This document shows positions 48,228 through 60,378 of a DNA stretch of 64,000 nt, one piece after another. The position numbers and the translations under genes are program-made. The stretch is from the NCBI RefSeq assembly GCF_011516735.1, contig NZ_WOSX01000010.1, positions 1 through 64,000 on the forward strand, read 5' to 3'. The DNA is from Acetobacter fallax. GTDB lineage: Bacteria; Pseudomonadota; Alphaproteobacteria; Acetobacterales; Acetobacteraceae. Numbering within the stretch: the first letter of the stretch is position 1; each line of letters begins with the position of its first letter. The notes below the pieces were generated by a model. The model ran no database searches, was not told the origin of the DNA, and saw only the letters and a list, made by a program, of their open reading frames with translations.

Positions 48228-48740
48228 TCAGTTGTCGCGGTTTCCATTGTCGGCACGAAGTTCGCGCGCACGCGCCAGGATCTTCGAGGTGATATCCGAG
48301 GCCATGTTCGCGGCCGGCGGCGTATCGGTCCAGGCACCATCCTGATAGACCTGCCGGAACACGCTGACGCGCAGAGCGTCTGAGCGGAGGCGACGATCAA
48401 GGATATATGCCGTGATCTTGAAACGCTCACTATGCGCAGCCGGTGGTGTGAACCAGTCTGTCAGTATGAAACCGCCAACGGCATCAGCGGACGCTATGGG
48501 CATAAAAGACAGTGTATCCAGCGCGCCACGCCACAAATAGGCATTAACGCCGCCTGCCAGCTGATCGTCGCCGCCAGTTGCGCCGCGATCTTCACTGAGA
48601 AGGTGATTACGGGGGGCCGTCAGATCGCTGGCTTTGTCACCACCGGAACATGCGGTCAGCGTAAAGAGTGTGAGAACTGTGACCACACATGCTGTATGTC
48701 TGGCACGCAATGAAGTCCGGTGAACGCGAGTGGTGGGCAT
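48228..48740 (-). CDS. DUF3576 lipoprotein
   Basis: A 170-residue exported lipoprotein: lipobox LTAC after a hydrophobic stretch (VVTVLTLFTLTAC). The conserved DUF3576 domain follows (VNAYLWRGALDTLSFMPIASADAVGGFILTDWF, FKITAYILDRRLRSDALRVSVFRQ). The function is unknown; in many Rhodospirillales it sits directly before leuS, as here. Likely a periplasmic or outer-membrane protein. ATG 48740 chosen over the upstream 48764. Confidence 0.88.
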   Translation of the reverse strand: MPTTRVHRTSLRARHTACVVTVLTLFTLTACSGGDKASDLTAPRNHLLSEDRGATGGDDQLAGGVNAYLWRGALDTLSFMPIASADAVGGFILTDWFTPPAAHSERFKITAYILDRRLRSDALRVSVFRQVYQDGAWTDTPPAANMASDITSKILARARELRADNGNRDN

Positions 48741-48909
48741 GTGGTGCTGCGACTCCTGTAGCAAGACCCGCCAACTGGCCTCACCCTTTGTGAGAGCCTC
48801 CTGGTATCAGGGCGCGGTAAAATGAGGCACGACCGGGACAGTCTGCAAGTCGCTTTCATATCCCGTTGAGCAGACGCCGCCAAGCACCACTGACCTTTCT
48901 CGCCAGATA

Positions 48910-51057
48910 TTAACGTCCCTGAGAGGCGGCAGGTGCCGTTTCGGGTATTCCTGCGCTGATTAGTAGTTTAGTGAGAATTATCCGTTGCGATGCGGGAAAA
49001 TGACTGTAATGCGCCATGACCATATTCACTGACAGACACGGAGCCAGCCGGGCCAGATAGTCTTTTAAAACGTCTCTTTCGCCCTGAGTGTCTGCCGCTC
49101 CTTCACGTTGCAACTGATCCAGTGCGGCAAGGCAAAGCACAAGCATCGCTATACGGGTCGGTGCCGTGCTGAGGGATGTTTTTGCCCGCCTGACTGCATC
49201 TGATGTCCGGCCGGTCAGAAGCAACAGAAGGACAAAATCAACATCGAACAGATCCATGAACGGATGTGTCGGGTGAGATTTCATAAAAAGTTCTACTGCG
49301 TCGTACGCAGCAGCGGCATCGCCATTTGCGAGACTCGAATAAGCATCAATAGTAGCGATGACCCCACCTGAGGGAGTGACTGATTTCAACTCCTCCAGCA
49401 AGGAGCATCCATAGGTCTGATCAATCGGATTATTCAGGAGCAACCGTGTCAGAATCAGACGTCCGGTTATACTTTCCGGCATTACCCGAACAAGATGCCG
49501 CGCGGCATCTGTTGCAGCGTCAATATCCTCTTTGTACTTAACTACACTCCACTGCTCAAAGGATCTTACCAGCCGGAAAATTGCCGACACAAGAAGCAGA
49601 AACGGATGATCAGGCTCTCGCTGCAATGCTCGTTCAAGCAGCATCTGCACCTGCAAATAGCTACCTGGATCATTCCGACTGACAAGAGCGAGTGCGCGTA
49701 AACCTGCTTCGACAGGCAGGAGGTCCTCCGCTGAACGACCTGCCGCATTCCGGGCTTCCGTAACCGCGATCCGCCAGGCAATCTCTGTCGTAAGCAGAGC
49801 CGCAATATCATCAATGGTTTCGGGCGTAATATGAAAGCGATCAGCCCAGATGATGACGTTACCTCGTCGCTGATCAGTAACACGGATTGTCAGACGTGCA
49901 GCATTATCATGAGTTTCAGCGGAGAAAGTCCCCGGCAATATTGTACAGGCCTGAAATTTTGTTTCCACGAGATAATCAGGCTGTGGCAGGTTTTCAGATC
50001 GTGTCCCCTTCTCCTTGTCCGAACTGATATTACAAGGCGGGAATATGGATAAAAATCCGAATTGCACCAACTCCGCAGCCAGAAGGTCGAACAACGTCTC
50101 CACCTGCCCCGCAGAAATCGGCAGACGCGGGCCGGCCATCATTTGCAAAAAACCGACACTCGCAATATGGCCACTTAAAACACCGTGATGTTCGAAGTGG
50201 TCAGCAGACGACTGCCCTGAAGGAAGGTGAATGGCCAAATCTGAAAGTTCCGGCCTGCCAGCGTCCGGAGGTGTAGTGCCTCGTTCTAATGCTCCTTTAC
50301 CATTCACATGCTGTGCGCGAAGTTCAGAGATAACAGCCATTGTTGACGGACCCGGCTCGGCATCCAATGTCTCACGAAAAGCTGCCAGGCATTGTTCGGC
50401 AGAGAAAAGCCCGGCTCTGGTGTCATTTCTTCGTGCAAGCTCCCGAAGCTGAACTTTCCAGGCATTTTCGTTGAGCCGATCGAGGTGCAACAGGCGTGAT
50501 GCCGCAATCATCTTCTGCTCAGTCTCAGAAAGAGACAGAAGCGCCTGCTCCAGAGTAGCTATGAGATGTTGCTGCAGTCTGTTTCTTTGTGCCGCAAGCC
50601 ATTCATCAAGCGCCGGATCAACTGAATCAAGATCGGTCAGCAGCGCCGCATCTGTTCCGGGAAGTTTGAGAATACCGGATGCCGTTGCGTTCAGATACCG
50701 CTCGGCATCAACTGCCGTCAGTATCGGCTTTAGAGCAAGCGTATGCCTCTGAACGTCGAGAATATCCGTTCCCAGAGGACTCAATACGTCCGAAAGACGA
50801 TGAATTTCCTGTCGAAGTGAGGCCCGTGCCTGCTCATCCGAACGACGGCTCCAGAGGAGATGCGCAAGGGACCGACGCGTTACTGCACGCCGATCTGACA
50901 ACGCCAGTATAGCCAAAAGGCCCCGGGTCTTAGCACCCGTCGGCGTGATCAGAGAGCCATCCAGCATCTGAACAGACATTGAACCCAGAAGTTCAACTCG
51001 CAGAATCGCTGCGTCGGATTTTCTTAGTCCCGGTTTTGTTAACTCAAACAAACCCAT
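48910..51057 (-). CDS. SARP/BTAD-type transcriptional activator
   Basis: Large regulator. An OmpR-like winged helix at about residues 15-110 (VELLGSMSVQMLDGSLI, KTRGLLAILALSDRRAVTRRSLAHLLW, ARASLRQEIHRL) is followed by a BTAD domain (about 115-250; DALLTDLDSV, LHLDRLNENAWKVQLRELARR, EQCLAAFRETLDAEPG). A long C-terminal half with TPR-like helices ends the protein; a FIHTP-like adenylate-cyclase/ATPase domain is not apparent. ATG 51057 follows AGGAG; a longer TTG frame from 51168 exists. The BTAD/SARP family activates secondary-metabolite and secretion genes, so it is a candidate regulator of the adjacent Hint protein and peptide-export genes. Confidence 0.82.
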   Translation of the reverse strand: MGLFELTKPGLRKSDAAILRVELLGSMSVQMLDGSLITPTGAKTRGLLAILALSDRRAVTRRSLAHLLWSRRSDEQARASLRQEIHRLSDVLSPLGTDILDVQRHTLALKPILTAVDAERYLNATASGILKLPGTDAALLTDLDSVDPALDEWLAAQRNRLQQHLIATLEQALLSLSETEQKMIAASRLLHLDRLNENAWKVQLRELARRNDTRAGLFSAEQCLAAFRETLDAEPGPSTMAVISELRAQHVNGKGALERGTTPPDAGRPELSDLAIHLPSGQSSADHFEHHGVLSGHIASVGFLQMMAGPRLPISAGQVETLFDLLAAELVQFGFLSIFPPCNISSDKEKGTRSENLPQPDYLVETKFQACTILPGTFSAETHDNAARLTIRVTDQRRGNVIIWADRFHITPETIDDIAALLTTEIAWRIAVTEARNAAGRSAEDLLPVEAGLRALALVSRNDPGSYLQVQMLLERALQREPDHPFLLLVSAIFRLVRSFEQWSVVKYKEDIDAATDAARHLVRVMPESITGRLILTRLLLNNPIDQTYGCSLLEELKSVTPSGGVIATIDAYSSLANGDAAAAYDAVELFMKSHPTHPFMDLFDVDFVLLLLLTGRTSDAVRRAKTSLSTAPTRIAMLVLCLAALDQLQREGAADTQGERDVLKDYLARLAPCLSVNMVMAHYSHFPASQRIILTKLLISAGIPETAPAASQGR

Positions 51058-51453
51058 ACGCTCCTGCTCGACCCATATCGCCGGAATCTCACCGCACATA
51101 AGTGGCAAAGGAGCCGATGAACGGACTTTCAGATTCCCTTTGTGAGAGTTCCGGATCAGAGCCCACAACTCAGTTGAGCCGGAGTATTAAGGCAAAACAG
51201 TTTCATACGAATGAACGTTTGTTTCGGAAATGTTCCTGAACACAGGCTCCGTTACCGTCGAAACTCACAAAGCGGCAAGCCTGGATTGCCCATTCTGCCG
51301 TTTTTCGGATTATTGCCCGTGCAGCAGTTCCATCGTGATGTGAGGCTGGATTAAGGCATTATTATGAGACATCCCCGGGCAGTATCGCTTCAGAAACAGA
51401 CCTGAATCTGAAATAAACCCGACTGTATCCGTTTGGCTAAAATAGTGCAGGTA

Positions 51454-51485
51454 GAAAAAAGGAGGGCATATGCCCTCCTTTTTTC
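51454..51485. terminator. Bidirectional terminator, perfect palindrome
   Basis: A 32-bp perfect palindrome: GAAAAAAGGAGGGCAT followed by its exact reverse complement. An A-run and a T-run flank the 10-bp GC-rich stem, so it can terminate in both directions. It lies 45 bases beyond the stop of the Hint-domain gene. The rest of the 51058-51530 gap is the upstream region of the regulator and shows no gene. Confidence 0.92.
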
Positions 51486-51530
51486 TTCTCCTACCCGCTC
51501 CGGAAAGGATCGGGCCGCTATAGATTGCGA

Positions 51531-53270
51531 TCAGGCAACCTGAATTCCGGCGACATCCGAAACATCAATCAGATAAGGACCAGCAGAAAGCACTTCAATT
51601 TCAACCATTTTTGCAAACAGTCCCTCAGAGGCCAGCCCCAGTGACAGCAGAGCATCACCTGCCGTCCAGCGACCGACACCACCCTCGCTGACATGCCAGC
51701 CATCGACAGCGTCTGCATCTTTGCAGGCTGTCAGTGCATGACGCTCACGGCCGTTCGCAATGAAGATGTTACCGATTAGAACACCCAGTGTGCGACGGTC
51801 ATCACAGAAGGGACCAATCGCCTCAGAAGGGCGGGCAGCGTTCGTGACGACCCGGACAGTTTCGACACTGGCCGGAACCATGAAGCAGTAGGTCCGGTCA
51901 ATATGACGGACCGGACGAATTTCACGGCCATCTTCTGTAACAAGCCGGATGTCCGGATCCACGACAGACTGCTTTGATACTCTTGCGGCGTCCATTTCCA
52001 TGCCGAGTTGCCCGGCCCGTGTAGCAAGGTTCTTCCAGATCGGTTCAACCATGTCACGATCGGTAGTAAGCGGAGCTGCCGCATCGCTCTGCCAGTCTTT
52101 ACCACCAGCAATAACCAGACCACCAGCAAAGTGAGGGCGCATGGAACGAATGACGGAGTTCTCGAATGTGCCACGGTTGCCCGTATCGAGATAGCTTTCG
52201 CTAAGCAGCCCTTCAGACACAATCACGGCGTGCTCATCAAGCTCGACATGATAGAAGTCATACGATGTCATGCTGCGTTCAACGATGATGGACCGGCCAT
52301 TGACCAGCATGCGAACCGGGATAAAGCGGCCATCGACATACACACAATGCTCTGATGTAACGAGCAGATCACGATGAGGAGCATCTGTGCCGAAGGCGTC
52401 TTTGACGATACGGACCGGATAGGCGTCCTGATCGAAACCAAGCTTTGCGACGTCAGCATGGGAACGGCCCAGCCATGCAAGCGGACGGTAAGCAATCTCC
52501 CCATTGGTCAGAACTGCGATTTCATCGCCTTCGGAGAGGGTCTCAACCTGCTTTTCGCCATTGCGCGTCAGGATATGCGTACCGGGCAGGAAGCAGCCGT
52601 CAATCTGGCAGGAATCATTCTTATCGGTATGAAAATACGTTACCGGGCAGCCTTTCTCCACAGTCACGGGGACACCAATATAGCCCGGAGACGGATTACC
52701 CTGCGGGTTGGCTGGCGTGCCGGTGACGGGGATTGCGCTATCCTGCTTGATAATAAGCGTGGAACTGGTCGTGTCAGATCCGCCAATACCGACATTCGAT
52801 CCGTAACCACCAGGCACATTCTGCGCGCAGAGACCAGCACCGGAACCAAAATTGGCAATCGTCGCATTCTGAAGCGACGGATAAGTATAGAACTGATCAC
52901 CGCCAGCCGACAGATCTTCACCCGCCATATTGGCCTGATAAGCCCACTTGCCGCTGGTGTTTTCCAGAACAAGCGTTGACCCTGTACCGGACATGTCAAT
53001 GGTACCGGCGACATGAGCGCCCGTCTTGATGTCGAGATGGGCACCGTTGACATTAATTCCGCCGGTAGATGCCGAAGAATTGAAATCCTTCGTGACGGCT
53101 GTGCCGACCGTTACATTGTCTGGCAGAACATACCACTTACCTGATGCAAGGGTAATCGTACCAGAATTACCTTCCAGGATGTATGGATCGACCTCAGTAC
53201 CAGTGCCGCCTGAAGTAGCGGCCGTGGCAGTCAGCGCGCTGCTGGTGTTCGTTTTTGTGCTGTCGAGCAT
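51531..53270 (-). CDS. Hint-domain exported-type protein
   Basis: A 579-residue protein. Residues 1-200 are Gly/Thr/Ser-rich beta-structure (ITLASGKWYVLPDNVTV, INVNGAHLDIKTGAHVAGTIDMSG), like a beta-helix passenger. A Hint_2 domain follows at about 226-366: CFLPGTHILTRNGEKQVETLSEGDEI with the would-be nucleophile Cys226, then LLVTSEHCVYVDGRFIPVRMLVNG and YHVELDEHAVIVSEGLLSESYLDTGN. The C-terminal 200 residues are typical of this group. No classical signal peptide; TAATSGG at 17-22 is a possible double-Gly site. Hint domains can autocleave; whether this one does is unknown. It diverges from the leader-peptide gene. Confidence 0.85.
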   Translation of the reverse strand: MLDSTKTNTSSALTATAATSGGTGTEVDPYILEGNSGTITLASGKWYVLPDNVTVGTAVTKDFNSSASTGGINVNGAHLDIKTGAHVAGTIDMSGTGSTLVLENTSGKWAYQANMAGEDLSAGGDQFYTYPSLQNATIANFGSGAGLCAQNVPGGYGSNVGIGGSDTTSSTLIIKQDSAIPVTGTPANPQGNPSPGYIGVPVTVEKGCPVTYFHTDKNDSCQIDGCFLPGTHILTRNGEKQVETLSEGDEIAVLTNGEIAYRPLAWLGRSHADVAKLGFDQDAYPVRIVKDAFGTDAPHRDLLVTSEHCVYVDGRFIPVRMLVNGRSIIVERSMTSYDFYHVELDEHAVIVSEGLLSESYLDTGNRGTFENSVIRSMRPHFAGGLVIAGGKDWQSDAAAPLTTDRDMVEPIWKNLATRAGQLGMEMDAARVSKQSVVDPDIRLVTEDGREIRPVRHIDRTYCFMVPASVETVRVVTNAARPSEAIGPFCDDRRTLGVLIGNIFIANGRERHALTACKDADAVDGWHVSEGGVGRWTAGDALLSLGLASEGLFAKMVEIEVLSAGPYLIDVSDVAGIQVA

Positions 53271-53684
53271 GTAAGGTTCCTTGGGGTTCCGGACGACAGG
53301 GCATCCGTTTGGCTTTTTTTAACTTTTTATAACTTTCTCTGTCAACGAAATAAAACGTTAAATGTTTTGATTTTACAAACAATTTAGAATTAATCTTCAG
53401 ATGATTATTCAGGTTAATCCTGCAATGTTGTTGAGCTGACCAGCAATATTCCAATGCATTTCAAAATGATAAAACAAACGCAGCAAAACAATAGAACCTC
53501 TCTCATATTAATAAAGAACAATGCGATGTTACGTCTTTCGTGGCATGTCCAGCATCTGGTGCATTTATTCTCTGGAACAGGCCTCTAAAAAATATTAACA
53601 ACCTCTTAAGGCGAGGCGTTGTGGTGACATCACGCTCGTCATTGCTCATTCCGCTGAGAAATCTGACGCGGGAGGGCATAAAAT
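53271..53684. promoter_or_regulatory. Divergent AT-rich control region
   Basis: About 410 AT-rich bases between the Hint gene and the leader-peptide gene, with no coding frame that I support. A direct repeat TAACTTT occurs at 53320-53326 and 53330-53336, 50-66 bases upstream of the Hint start (AAAGTTA twice with a 10-base period on the coding strand). SARP regulators bind such closely spaced heptamer repeats, so this is a candidate target. Confidence 0.5.
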
Positions 53685-54101
53685 ATGGAGAGAACTCAGA
53701 TGCGTGAACTAACAATGATGGAACTCAATGAAGTTTCCGGGGGATGCAATACGCACCCATCCTGTAGCCCTCGGCCAGCCTGTAATCCGCACCCGTCCTG
53801 CACGCCAGGCGCTGCCTCTATCGCGGCTTATGCCGGGTATCTCGCTGGCGAATATAATGTACAGGCAGACATTTTTAATCATGCGAGTTGCTCAACAATA
53901 AGCTCAGCTCAACAGAATGTTTATACTGATACCAAAATGGGATACACGGCTGGTCTGAGCATGACAGTTTGTCAGGCAACCACCCTGCTTAACAATGTCG
54001 TTTCAGCGATTCATTCAGCTGTAAGCCTTAATCAGTGCGGCTATGTCACTGCCATGAGCACAATCGACTTCCCGCCGAATACAACTGGCAACCTGGGCTG
54101 A
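53685..54101 (+). CDS. Double-glycine leader peptide (bacteriocin-like) with tandem Cys hexads
   Basis: Small exported precursor of 138 residues. The leader MERTQMRELTMMELNEVSGG fits the GG-leader consensus (E-L-x-x-V-S-G-G) cut by C39 peptidases, with cleavage expected after Gly20. The core opens with four tandem hexapeptides, CNTHPS CSPRPA CNPHPS CTPGAA, so Cys21, 27, 33 and 39 are evenly spaced. A small-residue, partly hydrophobic region follows (SIAAYAGYLAGEYN, TLLNNVVSAIHSAVS) with Cys69, 96 and 118. ATG 53685 follows GGGAGGG; ATG 53700 is an alternative. I do not recognise the core family. Exporter genes follow on the same strand. Confidence 0.82.
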   Translation: MERTQMRELTMMELNEVSGGCNTHPSCSPRPACNPHPSCTPGAASIAAYAGYLAGEYNVQADIFNHASCSTISSAQQNVYTDTKMGYTAGLSMTVCQATTLLNNVVSAIHSAVSLNQCGYVTAMSTIDFPPNTTGNLG

Positions 54102-54157
54102 TGTTTCGAACAGGGTGCGTGCCGGAATACTGAGCGCACTGTCATTACAGATGAACT

Positions 54158-54212
54158 GACGGTCCTCCTGCCGCGCTGTGTCAGGCAGCGCGATCCGGTG
54201 GACCGTCTTTTT
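54158..54212 (+). terminator. Terminator/attenuator between peptide and exporter genes
   Basis: Outer stem GACGGTCC (54158-54165) pairs with GGACCGTC (54200-54207). An inner stem CGCGCTG (54172-54178) pairs with CAGCGCG (54186-54192). A T-rich tail TTTTTCTTTTCTTT follows from 54208. Partial read-through would give more peptide transcript than exporter transcript. Confidence 0.8.
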
Positions 54213-54291
54213 CTTTTCTTTATCTTTATCTGTATCTTTCTGTCGTTAATTTATCAGCGACACGCTCCGTACCCGAGAGATTCCTTTCTGT

Positions 54292-55602
54292 ATGTCGTCA
54301 CTTTATCGCCAGGAAGCGCTGGATGCTCGTCGCCAGGCGTGGCTCGGACAGGTGCAGGCAGCACAATCCCTGTCTGTCCGGGTTATTTCCTGGGCAACAC
54401 TCGGACTTGTCCTTCTTACAATTCTCTACCTGCGTTTCGGTATCTACACGCGCCGTGTTCATGCGACGGGACTGATGCTGCCGCCAACGGGGCTCATTAC
54501 CATCGATGCCAGCACAACTGGCATCATCAGCAAAAGACTGGCTGAAGAAGGAATGCAGGTGCATAAAAGCCAGCAGCTCTTCGTGATCGACCTTGAAGCG
54601 AGAACAACTGCTGGCGCGACACAGGAGCATGTTCTCACTCAGTTGCGCCGTCAGCGCGACTTATTTGAGAGGCAAAAAGAGATCCGGGTTGCTGATGCAC
54701 CCGTCGAGAAACAGGCTCTGGTGAATCAGATCAGGAACCTGCAGCAACAGCACGTGCTGACCGGGCAGCAGCTTGCAAATGATGCCAAAGTACTTCCTGT
54801 GGTTGAAGCTGCGGTAAGACGAATGAGGGATGCGGAAAGTGCTCATCTCGTCACCGAAACACAGTTTCAGAGCCAGCTTTATACTTATGCTCAGCTTCTT
54901 AGCAGTCACGCTCAGTTTCTTCAGAATTATACTGATACTGAAGGTAAGATTTCAGACAACACCTCGAAGCTGATGCGATATGATCGTCAGACAGCGCATG
55001 ATATCAACGACCTTGACCGGCAGATTGCTCAGATCGACCAGCAGATTGACGAGAGTGAAAGCCACCGCGAAATCATCATCGAAGCCCCGGAAGACGGTAT
55101 TCTGAGTGCCGTGCGAGGAAATCCGGGACAGCAGGTCAGTGCAGGAACACCGCTGGTAACCCTGCTTCCGACAGGTCGTACACTTGATGCCGAGCTTTAC
55201 GTCACGAGCGCTTCAATCGGCTTTGTCCGGGAAGGACAGCCGGTTCTGTTGCGTTATGCTGCTTTTCCTTATCAAAGATTCGGCCTTGCCCGGGGACGGG
55301 TAACAGAAATTACCCGTGCGCCTTTGACAGCAACGGAGCCGGGACAAGGTCAGCAACAACAGCAGAACGGCAGTTCGAAAGACCAGAAATCGTCTTCCGG
55401 ATCAGATCTGTACCGAATACGGGTCAGGCCTGATTTGCCGTATATACTGGCCTACGGACAAAAAAAGCCGATTCAGGCCGGGATGGAGGTCGAGGCAGAT
55501 ATCGCAATCGATTCGCGGCGTCTCTACCAGTGGATATTCGACCCGGTGACAAGCATGCGTGACAGTATTATGTCGGTCAGCGGCGGGCTCGTCGATAAAT
55601 GA
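54292..55602 (+). CDS. HlyD-family periplasmic adaptor (membrane fusion) protein
   Basis: Links the inner-membrane ABC exporter to an outer-membrane channel. One N-terminal transmembrane helix (VISWATLGLVLLTILYLRFGIY) is followed by the first half of a lipoyl-like domain (HATGLMLPPTGLITIDAST). A long alpha-helical hairpin follows (about 100-265, rich in Gln/Leu/Arg), then the second lipoyl half IIIEAPEDGILSAVRGNPGQQVSAGTPL and the beta-barrel region. 436 residues, within the range of bacteriocin/colicin V accessory proteins. Its stop overlaps the ABC gene start (ATGA). No outer-membrane TolC-like gene lies in this cluster, so a general TolC would be needed. Confidence 0.92.
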   Translation: MSSLYRQEALDARRQAWLGQVQAAQSLSVRVISWATLGLVLLTILYLRFGIYTRRVHATGLMLPPTGLITIDASTTGIISKRLAEEGMQVHKSQQLFVIDLEARTTAGATQEHVLTQLRRQRDLFERQKEIRVADAPVEKQALVNQIRNLQQQHVLTGQQLANDAKVLPVVEAAVRRMRDAESAHLVTETQFQSQLYTYAQLLSSHAQFLQNYTDTEGKISDNTSKLMRYDRQTAHDINDLDRQIAQIDQQIDESESHREIIIEAPEDGILSAVRGNPGQQVSAGTPLVTLLPTGRTLDAELYVTSASIGFVREGQPVLLRYAAFPYQRFGLARGRVTEITRAPLTATEPGQGQQQQQNGSSKDQKSSSGSDLYRIRVRPDLPYILAYGQKKPIQAGMEVEADIAIDSRRLYQWIFDPVTSMRDSIMSVSGGLVDK

Positions 55603-57784
55603 GCAATGCTTTCGATTCCCTTCAGTTTGGTTTCGGCAAAAAAGTGCCGGTTGTCCTTCAGGTCGAGGCGGCGGAGTGTGGTATCGCCTGTCTGGCCATG
55701 ATTCTCGGATATTACGGGCATCAGATTGATCTTGCCACTTTGCGGCGACGCTATTCGGTTTCTATCAAAGGCGTGACGCTGCGCAGCCTGGTACAGGCTG
55801 CCGATACGCTCAGTTTCACCAGTCGCGCGGTTCGTCTGGAACTGGATGATCTGCCCAGGCTGCGAACGCCCTGTATCCTCCATTGGGGGATGAACCATTT
55901 CGTGGTTCTGGTCGCTGTCAAAGGTGATCTGATCACAATCAATGATCCGGCTGTCGGACGCCGGACGGTGCCATTCGACGAAGTTTCCCGTGAATTTACG
56001 GGAGTTGCACTTGAGGTCACGCCCAACGAGACATTTGAACGTAAGGACGACCGCGAAACCATTCGGCTACGGGACATGTTTCGTCACGTTGCCGGACTGC
56101 GTGGCGCGCTCATGGGGCTGTTTTTTCTGTCGCTGGGGCTGGAAGTCATCGCGCTTATTTCGCCGATGATTTCACAGGTCGTGATCGACGAGGTGATCGT
56201 AACTGCGGATCATGATTTGCTGATGACGATCACCTTCGGTCTGGCCATGCTTCTTTTGCTGCAGATGTTCATAGGCTCGGTGCGAACCTGGGCTGTAACA
56301 TTGTTCAGCACACGGGTCGGTCTTGAATGGAATACAAGTCTTTTTGACCATCTGACCCGTTTGCCGCTCGATTATTTCAGCAAACGCCACGTCGGAGATG
56401 TTCTGTCCCGTTTTGGTTCGCTGGGATCAATTCAGCAGGCTCTGACGACTGATATGGTCCAGACTATCATGGACGGTCTGATGGGCATTGGCATGGGAAT
56501 CATGTTGTTCATTTACGGCGGCTGGCTGGGCCTGGTTGCCTGTATCGCACTGGTCCTGGATATTCTGCTCCGGCTCGTGACATATCGAACCTATCGCGAG
56601 GCTTCAGAAGAACAGATTGTCATTAATGCGCGCCAGCAGAGTCATTTTATCGAGACGCTGCGTGGTATGGCGAGCGTCAAACTGCTCGGTCTTCGGGAGA
56701 GGCGGCGCACGACCTGGCTGAACATCGTCATCGACAGTATCAACATCAAACTCAGGCTTCAGCGTTTCGACCTGATCTATGGCCGGCTTGGTGATTTTAT
56801 TTTCGGTGCAGATCGTCTGATCATGATGGTCCTCGGCGCGAGACAGGTCATGGACGGCTCCATGTCGGTTGGCATGCTGGTCGCGTTCCTGTCTTACAAA
56901 GATCAGTTCGCCAGCCGCGTCGGATCTCTTGTGGGAACCGGCTTTAAGCTACGGATGCTGAATATCCAGAGCGATCGTCTCGCTGACATCGTCATGACAG
57001 AGCCGGAGCCGGTCAGTCCGACGATTCCCGCGGAGCATCATGACGCTGCAAGCCTTGCCTGCCGTGAAATGTCTGTGCGTTACGCCGCACAGGAACCATG
57101 GATTTTCCAGGGTATCGATCTCGACATTCCGGCAGGCCAGAGCGTTGCGATCATCGGGCCATCAGGATGCGGCAAGACGACGCTGCTGAAAGCGATGATG
57201 GGGCTTCATCCTATGGATGAAGGGCATATTTTTATTGACGGTGTGGATATATCGGTTTTGTCGCTTGAGGGTTACCGTGAGCGTATTGCCGGCGTATTGC
57301 AGGATGACGGACTTTTTTCCGGGTCTGTCGCGGATAATATCAGTGGTTTTGCTGAGCAGCCGGATCAGGAACTGATCACACAATGCGCTGAAAAAGCAGC
57401 GATTCTCGATGATATTAAACGTATGCCGATGGGTTTTGAGACGCTCGTCGGCGACATGGGGGGGGCCTTTCAGGAGGACAAAAACAGCGTGTCATTCTGG
57501 CCCGCGCACTCTACAAACGGCCGCAAATCCTCTTTCTTGATGAAGCGACAAGTCATCTCGACGAATACACTGAATCGATCGTGGCGGGATCTCTTCGTGA
57601 CATGAAGATCACCCGGGTCATGGTGGCCCATCGGCCTGCGACGATCGCTCATGCTGACTATATTTATTCGTTTGAGCCGGGAGGTGTGCTGGTGTTGCGC
57701 AAGGGTCCCCGGCCGGCTCCGGCAACGGGTGGTTATGCCATTCCGGCGCAATTCGGTTCTTCCTGGACTATTTCCTCTTCGTGA
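55599..57784 (+). CDS. C39-peptidase ABC exporter (PCAT), frameshifted at a G8 tract
   Basis: Cleaves double-Gly leaders and exports the product. The C39 peptidase (1-135) has Gln21, Cys27 (QVEAAECGIACLAM), His100 (WGMNHFVV) and Asp116 (INDPAVG). About six transmembrane helices (150-440) and a nucleotide-binding domain follow, with Walker A GPSGCGKTTLL near 520. At 57458-57465 a run of eight G shifts the frame: as read, translation leaves the family and stops at 57605. With one more G the sequence continues MGGGLSGGQKQRVILARAL...ILFLDEATSHLDE to a stop at 57784 (about 728 residues). Error, mutation, slippage and phase variation remain possible. Confidence 0.88.
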
Positions 57785-59824: not shown

Positions 59825-59943
59825 GACGGTATCCTCCGGAACTGTATTCTGGAGCAAATCTGTTAGCAGGATGTAAATTGCAGTGAACGACGGACCTGCG
59901 GGAGCGTTCAGGTGCTGTCTGTTGACGCCATATGGAGGTTATA

Positions 59944-60378
59944 ATGCTCAGAATGCACAAAGCCGTTCCTTTCGCTTTTCTTGCTGCCTGTATGACGGCA
60001 GGCGTTTCACCGGCGGCGTGGGCTGCGAAAAGTCAGGTTTTCATTGGCACTTTCAGAGCAGAGCATGGGACGAACACTACGCCTTCGGGTGAAGTTCGGG
60101 CGACGCTTAATCCGGATACCAATGTGCTGAGCTATAAACTCTCCTGGAAAGGTTTGTCCGGACCGGTCAACGCTGCTCATTTTCACGGTCCGGCCTCTTT
60201 CGACCAGGACGCCGACGTGATGGTTCCTGTGGACGGCCCATATAAAAGCCCGCTCTCAGGAAAAGTAACGCTTGATAGCGAGCAGGCGAAAGAGCTGTCG
60301 GATGGGCAGGTTTATCTGAATCTGCACACGGAGGCCTTTCCAAATGGTGAGGCCCGGGCGCAGATGGTCAAACACTGA
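59944..60378 (+). CDS. CHRD domain secreted protein
   Basis: A 144-residue exported protein. A signal peptide (PFAFLAACMTAGVSPAAWA) is followed by one CHRD domain: GTFRAEHGTNTTPSGEVRATLNPDTNVLSYKLSWKGLSGPVNAAHFHGPAS...GQVYLNLHTEAFPNGEARAQM. CHRD domains are named after chordin; their bacterial role is unknown. ATG 59944 is fixed by TGGAGGTTATA just upstream. Confidence 0.9.
   Translation: MLRMHKAVPFAFLAACMTAGVSPAAWAAKSQVFIGTFRAEHGTNTTPSGEVRATLNPDTNVLSYKLSWKGLSGPVNAAHFHGPASFDQDADVMVPVDGPYKSPLSGKVTLDSEQAKELSDGQVYLNLHTEAFPNGEARAQMVKH

What the first reader, a model, noticed from the sequence alone, without database searches (positions are those of the whole stretch)
48910..57784. Leader-cleaving peptide secretion locus with a Hint-domain protein and a SARP-type regulator
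The sequence shows a GG-leader precursor, an HlyD adaptor and a C39-peptidase ABC exporter in one direction. A Hint-domain beta-rich protein and a BTAD regulator lie divergently. C39 exporters are established as double-Gly leader proteases/exporters, and BTAD/SARP proteins as activators of metabolite clusters. The inference is that these form one regulated secretion system with an unfamiliar peptide and perhaps a second, Hint-processed cargo. No modification enzyme or immunity gene is recognisable.
Basis: partly seen in the sequence, partly recalled or inferred. Interest (0 to 1): 0.85.

Follow-up and report, generated by a model that had tools for sequence, protein, structure and literature searches.

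The report
One exporter, many scattered secreted peptides
An acetic acid bacterium carries a conserved gene group that appears to cut and export a family of small secreted proteins, some encoded elsewhere in its genome, next to a gene for an intein-like (possibly self-cleaving) protein and a regulator; the exporter gene is interrupted in this particular assembly.

Summary
All five genes are present at the stated place, but the exporter reads in two pieces: a frameshift at an eight-G run (57458-57465) separates the ABC signature motif from the rest. The 12 distinct related loci compared are intact. The order BTAD-Hint<>precursor-HlyD-C39 exporter is conserved in 10 Acetobacter genomes including this one. 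An 11th is split by contig ends, and two keep four genes with BTAD unlinked. Close Hint and BTAD orthologues occur in exactly the 13 of 49 genomes with the close form of the exporter. It is the only C39 peptidase in 18 of the 20 genomes that have one. A 16-residue leader profile finds up to seven leader-bearing ORFs per genome, mostly unlinked, with unrelated cores; 16 of 17 genomes with such ORFs (E<=0.02) have the C39 exporter, and the 17th is 68% complete. The window genome has two. So this is a secretion hub for a GG-leader family, with a Hint protein as a regular companion. No immunity gene was recognised, and ten of the 12 loci sit between the same housekeeping genes, so I favour secreted surface/matrix proteins over a classical bacteriocin. 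Function, Hint activity and regulation are untested.

The parts
48910..51057 (-). BTAD (SARP-like) regulator gene; ORF runs to 51168 but the conserved start is MGLF at about 51057
   Evidence: Pfam BTAD 22.2 bits against cut-off 22.1; E<=1e-180 in 13 of 49 Acetobacter genomes; start from comparison of relatives
51531..53270 (-). Hint-domain protein, 579 aa: beta-rich N part, Hint_2 domain, conserved C-terminal part; no GG leader of the family type and no hydrophobic signal seen by eye
   Evidence: PF13403 E=1e-35; model matches BIL domains and inteins in PDB; Cys226 and T305/H308 conserved
52182..52595 (-). Hint_2 domain, residues 226-363, beginning at catalytic-position Cys226
53349..53361 (-). 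motif TTAACGTTTTATT, about 90 bases before the Hint start; possible regulator site
   Evidence: at 89-98 bases in 10 of 12 clade-1 loci scored, shuffle fractions 0 to 0.027 in those ten; the word was chosen after inspection
53700..54101 (+). GG-leader precursor, 133 aa (cargo family A)
   Evidence: alignment A2 of 24 members; Bacteriocin_IIc leader match below cut-off for the 138-aa form, no Pfam match for the 133-aa form; model of three helices plus hairpin
53700..53744 (+). double-glycine leader MRELTMMELNEVSGG; next residue is Cys
   Evidence: leader profile A1
54292..55602 (+). HlyD-type membrane fusion protein
   Evidence: Pfam HlyD_3, HlyD_D23; TIGR01843 E=1e-33 but under its curated cut-off
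55599..57605 (+). C39-peptidase ABC exporter as the uninterrupted ORF reads (668 aa); last ~45 residues are out of frame
   Evidence: Peptidase_C39, ABC_membrane, ABC_tran; only C39 in this genome
55641..56030 (+). C39 peptidase domain
   Evidence: PF03412 match
57458..57465 (+). run of eight G where the exporter frame is lost
   Evidence: not present as a pure run in the relatives printed
57467..57784 (+). remaining exporter C-terminal segment (LSGGQ, Walker B, tail) in the other frame
   Evidence: 105 codons, dN/dS about 0.025 and 0.08 against two relatives

Best explanation
The locus is the only C39 (double-glycine) type I secretion hub of this Acetobacter. Shown by sequence: one exporter pair (HlyD + C39 ABC), a GG-leader precursor beside it, a second precursor of the same family on another contig, a divergent Hint protein and a BTAD protein, conserved together. 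Inferred: the C39 domain removes the shared leader of the linked and the unlinked precursors and exports the roughly 115-residue helical cores through a TolC-type outer-membrane channel encoded elsewhere; BTAD tunes expression; the Hint protein is exported or surface-placed by an unknown route and cleaves itself at Cys226. The cargos most likely act as small secreted surface or matrix proteins, comparable in logic to cyanobacterial EbfG proteins, rather than as a classical immunity-paired bacteriocin. In this assembly the exporter is frameshifted, which is either an assembly error at a homopolymer or a very recent loss.
For: Five-gene order in 10 genomes including the window; four genes linked in two more; one split by contig ends. 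Hint (E<=1e-100) and BTAD (E<=1e-180) in exactly the 13 of 49 genomes with the close exporter. C39 is single-copy in 18 of the 20 genomes that have it, so unlinked leader-bearing ORFs have no other C39 exporter there. Leader ORFs at E<=0.02 in 17 of 49 genomes, 16 with C39; Fisher P=2e-8, not corrected for relatedness. Up to seven leader ORFs per genome, with unrelated cores. Low dN/dS for all five genes against two relatives: about 0.12 BTAD, 0.07-0.15 Hint, 0.08-0.19 precursor, 0.03-0.04 HlyD and the exporter before the break (my ratios). LeuS and DUF3576 on one side and Prs on the other in the window and the nine other five-gene loci: stable place rather than a mobile island. No small ORF that looks like an immunity gene recurs around the 12 loci.
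Against: No secretion, cleavage or phenotype was measured. The leader/exporter association is confounded by phylogeny, and the 0.02 cut-off was set after seeing the list; five further genomes, all without C39, have weak leader matches at E 0.05-0.72. Several cargos carry GxxxG glycine-zipper helices like Cdz toxins. Four C39 genomes (G169, G222, G223, G225) gave no match to the leader profile; they carry a different leader (MKTLNDSEI..AGG or close). One leader genome (G232) has no C39 match, though only 68% complete. L056 and L057 lie at another place (no LeuS or Prs in 20 kb). dS is 1.0-3.0, near saturation, so the ratios are rough. A DUF4279 gene follows the exporter in L060 and was not studied. 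The window exporter is frameshifted as assembled.
Confidence: 0.5

Rival explanations
1. The cargos are Cdz-like or class II bacteriocins: helical glycine-zipper proteins exported by a C39 system, staying on the surface and killing neighbours, with self-protection encoded elsewhere.
For: Length 128-144 aa, GG leader, GxxxGxxxG in 12 of 24 family members, namely all 11 unlinked B copies and L053; small-xxx-G-xxx-G in the window copy; weak matches to Pfam MccV in 10 of 24 (best E 0.00068) and Bacteriocin_IIc in 9 of 24 (best 0.011), cut-offs not shown in that table; Cdz criteria read in passages of PMC5380434. Other leader ORFs are strongly glycine-zipper-like. In L073 a 61-aa GG peptide has a 75-aa hydrophobic ORF directly beside it (no Pfam match), a possible immunity gene.
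Against: No recurring immunity-like ORF around the 12 clade-1 loci. Ten of these 12 loci share one place and the genes have low dN/dS, whereas the Cdz paper says many Cdz-like systems appear horizontally acquired. The window precursor in its 133-aa form matched no Pfam family at E<=1.
Confidence: 0.27
2. The frameshift is real and the locus is decaying in this strain, so no secretion takes place.
For: The signature motif and Walker B are out of frame as assembled; it is the only C39 exporter in the genome.
Against: The 105 codons after the break still show low dN/dS, and both precursors, Hint and BTAD are open. The break lies in an eight-G run in a 162-contig assembly, a usual place for a length error or a very recent slip (general knowledge).
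Confidence: 0.15
3. The peptides are signalling peptides (pheromones) sensed by neighbours.
For: GG peptides exported by C39 transporters are often signals (general knowledge; start of the abstract of PMC7018657 in the listing).
Against: Mature products of about 115 residues with a confidently modelled core are large for a pheromone. I saw no receptor kinase by eye in the ORF list; this was not searched.
Confidence: 0.08
4. Hint and BTAD are chance neighbours of an ordinary peptide exporter.
For: Hint proteins are common here: seven matches in this genome, itself included, and relatives have up to 27 first-look candidates. BTAD is unlinked in two genomes. No Hint was found in 10 of 13 exporter loci of other genera.
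Against: Exact 13-of-13 co-occurrence. Hint is divergent from the precursor in a second genus and in the same 20 kb in 6 of 9 clade-2 loci. In G013 three tandem GG peptides sit beside a Hint gene about 177 kb from the sole C39 gene.
Confidence: 0.08

Closest known systems
Cdz contact-dependent bacteriocin system of Caulobacter crescentus (PMC5380434; passages read, part of the abstract among them)
   Same: Alphaproteobacterium; type I exporter with separate adaptor, no outer-membrane gene in the cluster; small leader-bearing proteins with glycine-zipper stretches in many members
   Different: Two toxin genes plus immunity gene cdzI are in one cluster there. Here there is no recognised immunity gene, cargos are scattered, a Hint protein and a BTAD gene accompany the exporter, and the window core has a Cys/Pro/His-rich N-terminal tail. 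No direct sequence comparison with CdzC/D was made.
EbfG1-4 / PteB biofilm proteins of Synechococcus elongatus (PMC4997328; abstract and start of introduction read)
   Same: Several small GG-motif proteins whose efficient secretion needs the peptidase domain of a transporter; shows that GG cargo need not be an antibiotic
   Different: No sequence relation was tested here; cyanobacterial; no Hint or BTAD companion mentioned in what I read
Hint/BIL domains (bacterial intein-like, inteins, hedgehog C-terminal domain)
   Same: PF13403 Hint_2 match; model aligns with BIL2, C. thermocellum BIL, inteins and hedgehog; Cys at the start in 19 of 20 and T..H in 20 of 20 aligned
   Different: No intein-type His-Asn/Cys end was seen by eye (motif recalled, not tested), so cleavage rather than splicing is expected; sits divergently to a GG-peptide gene
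NHLP / C39 peptide exporters (TIGR03796, TIGR01846)
   Same: C39 + membrane + ABC domain order; best NCBIfam match TIGR03796 E=1.5e-119
   Different: 400 bits against a curated cut-off of 853, partly because the frame is broken; the precursor has a short GG leader

Membership tests
C39 peptidase-containing ABC exporter | N-terminal C39 domain, transmembrane region and ABC ATPase in one chain | tested here: inconclusive
   All three Pfam domains present, but the ATPase is split by the frameshift in the window; one open frame in 12 distinct related loci
C39 peptidase-containing ABC exporter | cleaves cargo after a double glycine | not testable with these tools
   Leader conserved in 24 aligned precursors; cleavage not measured
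Cdz-like contact-dependent bacteriocin | 60-151 residues with leader ending in G[G/A/S] | tested here: met
   Window precursor 133 aa, SGG; criteria from a passage of PMC5380434
[quoted passage not shown]
   Window copy has AxxxGxxxG, no strict GxxxGxxxG; strict motif in 12 of 24 members including the own-genome paralogue
Cdz-like contact-dependent bacteriocin | immunity gene with the toxin gene | tested here: not met
   Survey of 388 ORFs of 30-220 aa around 12 clade-1 loci: the recurring ones lie, as I read their positions, in frames over flanking genes or antisense in promoter DNA; an immunity gene elsewhere, or a locus-specific one such as the DUF4279 gene of L060, is not excluded
Cdz-like contact-dependent bacteriocin | kills neighbours on contact | not testable with these tools
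   needs co-culture
Hint domain (Hint_2 / BIL-like) | sequence and fold of the Hint domain | tested here: met
   PF13403 123.7 bits against 28.4; PDB fold matches E down to 1.4e-6
Hint domain (Hint_2 / BIL-like) | catalytic-position Cys and TxxH conserved | tested here: met
   Cys 19 of 20, T..H 20 of 20 aligned proteins
Hint domain (Hint_2 / BIL-like) | self-cleavage | not testable with these tools
   needs expressed protein
SARP (Streptomyces antibiotic regulatory protein) family | winged-helix DNA-binding domain followed by BTAD | tested here: inconclusive
   BTAD 22.2 bits (cut-off 22.1); Trans_reg_C 17.7 bits, below cut-off 26.2
SARP (Streptomyces antibiotic regulatory protein) family | binds repeats in target promoters | not testable with these tools
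   a shared upstream motif was found, binder unknown

The most novel reading that the evidence does not exclude
Peptide ligation outside the cell. After C39 cleavage the mature cargo would begin with a free N-terminal cysteine (GG|C), and the Hint protein begins its Hint domain with Gly|Cys226, so it could form a thioester with its own beta-rich N-terminal part. The two could join by native chemical ligation, fixing the small protein covalently to a surface-placed Hint-derived domain: a natural form of the laboratory method of intein-mediated ligation. The GG|C end is present in 21 of 24 family members and in 3 of 4 of the second genus; Gly before the Hint Cys is present in 10 of the 11 clade-1 Hint proteins aligned (the L065 copy was not in that alignment). 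Against it: clade-2 cargos beside Hint begin with Thr, L056/L057 begin with Phe, and the second-genus Hint proteins have Val or Thr before the Cys.
Probability: 0.06. Interest if true: 0.92.

Novelty: new variant of a known kind. Interest (0 to 1): 0.56.

Why it matters
If right, some acetic acid bacteria have a GG-peptide secretome served by a single exporter, with many unrelated small cargos that share only a 15-residue leader. That makes the cargos easy to list (leader profile) and the whole set easy to test (one deletion). It would also give bacterial Hint_2 proteins a concrete context, as a conserved partner of secreted small proteins; a cellulose-producer paper lists a Hint domain-containing protein as of unknown function (PMC11999647, two passages). 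Acetobacter species form pellicles and live in insects and fermentations (general knowledge), so a surface or competition role would be relevant there.

Tried and rejected
Bacteriocin with modification enzyme (lantibiotic or NHLP type): I saw no modification enzyme by eye in the ORF list (not searched), and the precursor leader is short.

Anti-phage defence: PADLOC gave only ATPase cross-matches to the exporter.

Mobile or plasmid origin: no plasmid match for the precursor; LeuS and Prs flanks conserved in the nine other five-gene loci, though not in L056, L057 or the clade-2 and other-genus loci.

Known fold for the precursor core: no PDB match better than E=3.9 by Foldseek, best profile match E=0.1.

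Poly-G phase variation of the exporter: considered. The pure run is not seen in the relatives, so it is not supported as an evolved switch; it cannot be excluded for this one species.

Common regulator site for all cargos: a matrix made from 11 B promoters reached the 2% level of the random-segment control in 10 of 12 A/Hint gaps (not in the window, 0.097, nor L061), but in none of 16 other cargo promoters (best 0.022), so a regulon of all cargos is not supported. The control segments included loci that hold such sites. The word was chosen after looking at the same sequences, so its shuffle fractions are optimistic; clade-2 and other-genus promoters gave one of twelve at 0.005, the rest 0.195 or more.

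My first label for the gene at 48228-48764 (LptE) was wrong; Pfam says DUF3576.

A regular expression for GG leaders found nothing because of an error in it; it was corrected. It is crude: it found no candidate in L075, L085, L086, L091, L092 and L094, and some of its rows elsewhere are chance.

Paper searches with no hits in this library. Subscription papers are mostly not held, so absence there proves little.


Full report
What is there. The region 48910-57784 holds a BTAD protein and a Hint_2 protein on the minus strand and, divergently, a GG-leader precursor, an HlyD adaptor and a C39 ABC exporter. The window lies in a 4.2 Mb genome (G000, 162 contigs). Its closest named relative here is Acetobacter oeni: locus L012, NZ_WOTA01000010.1, matches the Hint protein over its full length at 69%.

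The exporter frame is lost at a run of eight G, 57458-57465. The next codons in the other frame give LSGGQ, Walker B and a C terminus that ends at 57784, like the relatives. The related copies printed (13 sequences, 12 distinct loci) are uninterrupted, 735-757 aa. The 105 codons after the break show dN/dS of about 0.025 and 0.08 against two relatives, so the break is an error or very recent.

Conservation of the unit. tblastn of the five proteins against fetched loci shows BTAD-Hint<>precursor-HlyD-exporter in L058 (the same locus as L012) and L059 to L066, nine genomes besides the window. L056 and L057 have the same order without BTAD; their BTAD matches are on other contigs. G205 has BTAD and Hint at the start of one contig, and the precursor end, HlyD and exporter at the start of another. 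The exporter at E<=1e-150 occurs in 20 of 49 Acetobacter genomes: 13 at 82-100% identity (clade 1) and seven at 72-75% (clade 2). Hint at E<=1e-100 occurs in 13 of 49 and BTAD at E<=1e-180 in 13 of 49 (next best 8.8e-129); these are the same 13. At E<=1e-30 BTAD matches occur in 27 of 49. LeuS and DUF3576 on one side and Prs on the other are found in the nine five-gene relatives as in the window; L056 and L057 have none of the three in 20 kb. In the relatives read, L061, L062 and L066, SbcD/SbcC-like genes (names recalled from sequence) lie between exporter and Prs; in L060 a DUF4279 gene follows the exporter. A survey of 388 ORFs of 30-220 aa around the 12 loci gave no recurring candidate immunity gene: the recurring ones lie over flanking genes or antisense in promoter DNA, as I read their positions.

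One exporter, several cargos. The precursor has a paralogue in the same genome on contig 24 (51%). In all, 11 of the 13 clade-1 genomes have such an unlinked copy (B), in the loci L042, L044-L052 and L055; G216 and G229 have none. A QueC-like protein (name recalled; cluster c1) is in 9 of these 11 loci. A profile of 18 leaders, 16 positions, run over 49 genomes finds leader-bearing ORFs at E<=0.02 in 17, up to seven in one genome; five further genomes have only weaker matches, E 0.05-0.72. Twenty regions read show small ORFs with quite different cores (Gly/Cys/Pro-rich, glycine-zipper, and others); in four of the 20 (L112, L113, L115, L116) the regular expression recovered no precursor. Pfam C39 finds 20 of 49 genomes, 18 with a single copy, the same 20 as the exporter list. 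Of the 17 leader genomes, 16 have C39; the exception G232 is 68% complete. None of the five weak ones has C39. Fisher P=2e-8 without correction for relatedness. Four C39 genomes (G169, G222, G223, G225) lack profile matches but carry a peptide with another GG leader (MKTLNDSEI..AGG or close) directly beside the exporter.

Beyond the genus. In a sample of 200 family genomes, 13 genomes of other genera have the exporter at E<=1e-180, 48-67% identity. Their loci L082-L094 show GG- or GA-type small ORFs in 8 of 13 by a crude expression, and a Hint gene in the fetched stretch in 3 of 13. C39 is single-copy in 16 of the 18 other-genus genomes counted. In 346 order genomes the precursor family is found in 17, in 4 of 77 genera: 11 of this genus, four of genus g54, and two (G288, G013) that match over positions 1-50 only. 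The four g54 genomes have exporter, HlyD and a precursor in one place (in L136 found by frame reading), and Hint is divergent in the two loci that extend far enough. In G013 three tandem GG glycine-zipper ORFs sit beside a Hint gene, about 177 kb from the only C39 gene. Hint genes are numerous, so some proximity is expected by chance: 7 in 4.2 Mb is about 3% per 20 kb, more where there are more copies. The clade-2 figure, 6 of 9 loci from seven genomes, must be read with that in mind; in L077 the Hint gene is more than 4 kb from the peptide, with other ORFs between.

The cargo. Alignment of 24 members shows a conserved leader, a variable Cys/Pro/Gly/His-rich stretch beginning with Cys in 21 of 24, then a conserved core. 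AlphaFold gives three helices and a hairpin, block pLDDT 84-89 over residues 41-120, with leader and tails of low confidence. No PDB relative was found. Strict GxxxGxxxG is present in 12 of 24 members, not in the window copy, which has Ala in the first position. Pfam MccV and Bacteriocin_IIc match some members, best E 0.00068 and 0.011; the window copy in its 133-aa form matched nothing at E<=1.

The Hint protein. I see no GG leader of the family type and no hydrophobic signal (by eye). The Hint_2 domain matches BIL domains, inteins and hedgehog by fold; only part of the model is confident (mean pLDDT 65). Cys226 is kept in 19 of 20 and the T..H pair in 20 of 20. The route of export is unknown.

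Regulation. TTAACGTTTTATT or a close form lies 89-98 bases before Hint in the ten BTAD-linked loci. A similar word lies 105-108 bases before the 11 B precursors. Eight of 12 A loci have it towards the precursor, six at 153-161 bases and two (L056, L057) at 311-313, these two also with a site at 161-163 by the matrix. The window itself is not significant on the precursor side (0.22). The word was chosen after inspection, and the 16 other cargo promoters do not share it, so this is a lead only.

How it most likely works. Shown: the genes, their conservation, the single C39 exporter, the shared leader, the frameshift. Inferred: cleavage after GG and export of linked and unlinked cargos by this exporter; a TolC-like partner; a role as secreted surface or matrix proteins; Hint self-cleavage; BTAD control. 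I prefer the surface-protein reading to the bacteriocin reading because no immunity gene is recognised, the locus keeps its place in most clade-1 genomes and the cargo has low dN/dS (with near-saturated dS). The bacteriocin reading stays open at about a quarter.

Compared with what is known. Cdz of Caulobacter (PMC5380434, passages) is the nearest system by mechanism in the class that I know; EbfG/PteB (PMC4997328, abstract and start of introduction) is the nearest by logic. The Commensalibacter genome paper (PMC10149009, one passage) notes a bacteriocin exporter gene (COG2274) in all its genomes, so the exporter type is already annotated in the family. Three full-text searches gave no paper with all their terms: Acetobacter + bacteriocin + double-glycine, Acetobacteraceae + bacteriocin + type I secretion, Hint domain + bacteriocin + type I secretion. 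The library holds open-licence papers only.

Noticed in passing
L067, L068, L069, L070, L109, L124: A different GG-leader ORF (104-108 aa, same leader type) is followed by a protein of about 440-450 aa with no Pfam match over cut-off in the two scanned; the pair recurs in six loci and might be a cargo with its own partner.
   Followed up: partly
L138 8735-11044: Three tandem GG- or GA-leader glycine-zipper ORFs beside a Hint gene, far from the only C39 gene of that genome.
   Followed up: partly
L073 13043-13452: A 61-aa GG-leader bacteriocin-like ORF directly beside a 75-aa hydrophobic ORF without Pfam match, a possible peptide/immunity pair.
   Followed up: partly
L060 14245-14706: A DUF4279 gene (E=1.5e-10) directly after the exporter in one relative; role unknown.
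   Followed up: partly
L093 5130-6926: Four GG-leader-like ORFs in a row upstream of HlyD and the C39 exporter in a distant family member.
   Followed up: no
window genome G000, contigs C14, C23, C5, C4, C16, C51: Six further matches to the Hint protein in large open frames (940-2712 codons), so Hint modules also occur in big proteins; the C14 one was confirmed as Hint_2.
   Followed up: partly
window 59932-60378: A small protein with a signal-like start that looks like a CHRD-domain protein (recalled, not searched).
   Followed up: no
L080 12947-14128: A second Hint-like gene in tandem whose domain begins with Ser instead of Cys at the aligned place, possibly inactive.
   Followed up: no
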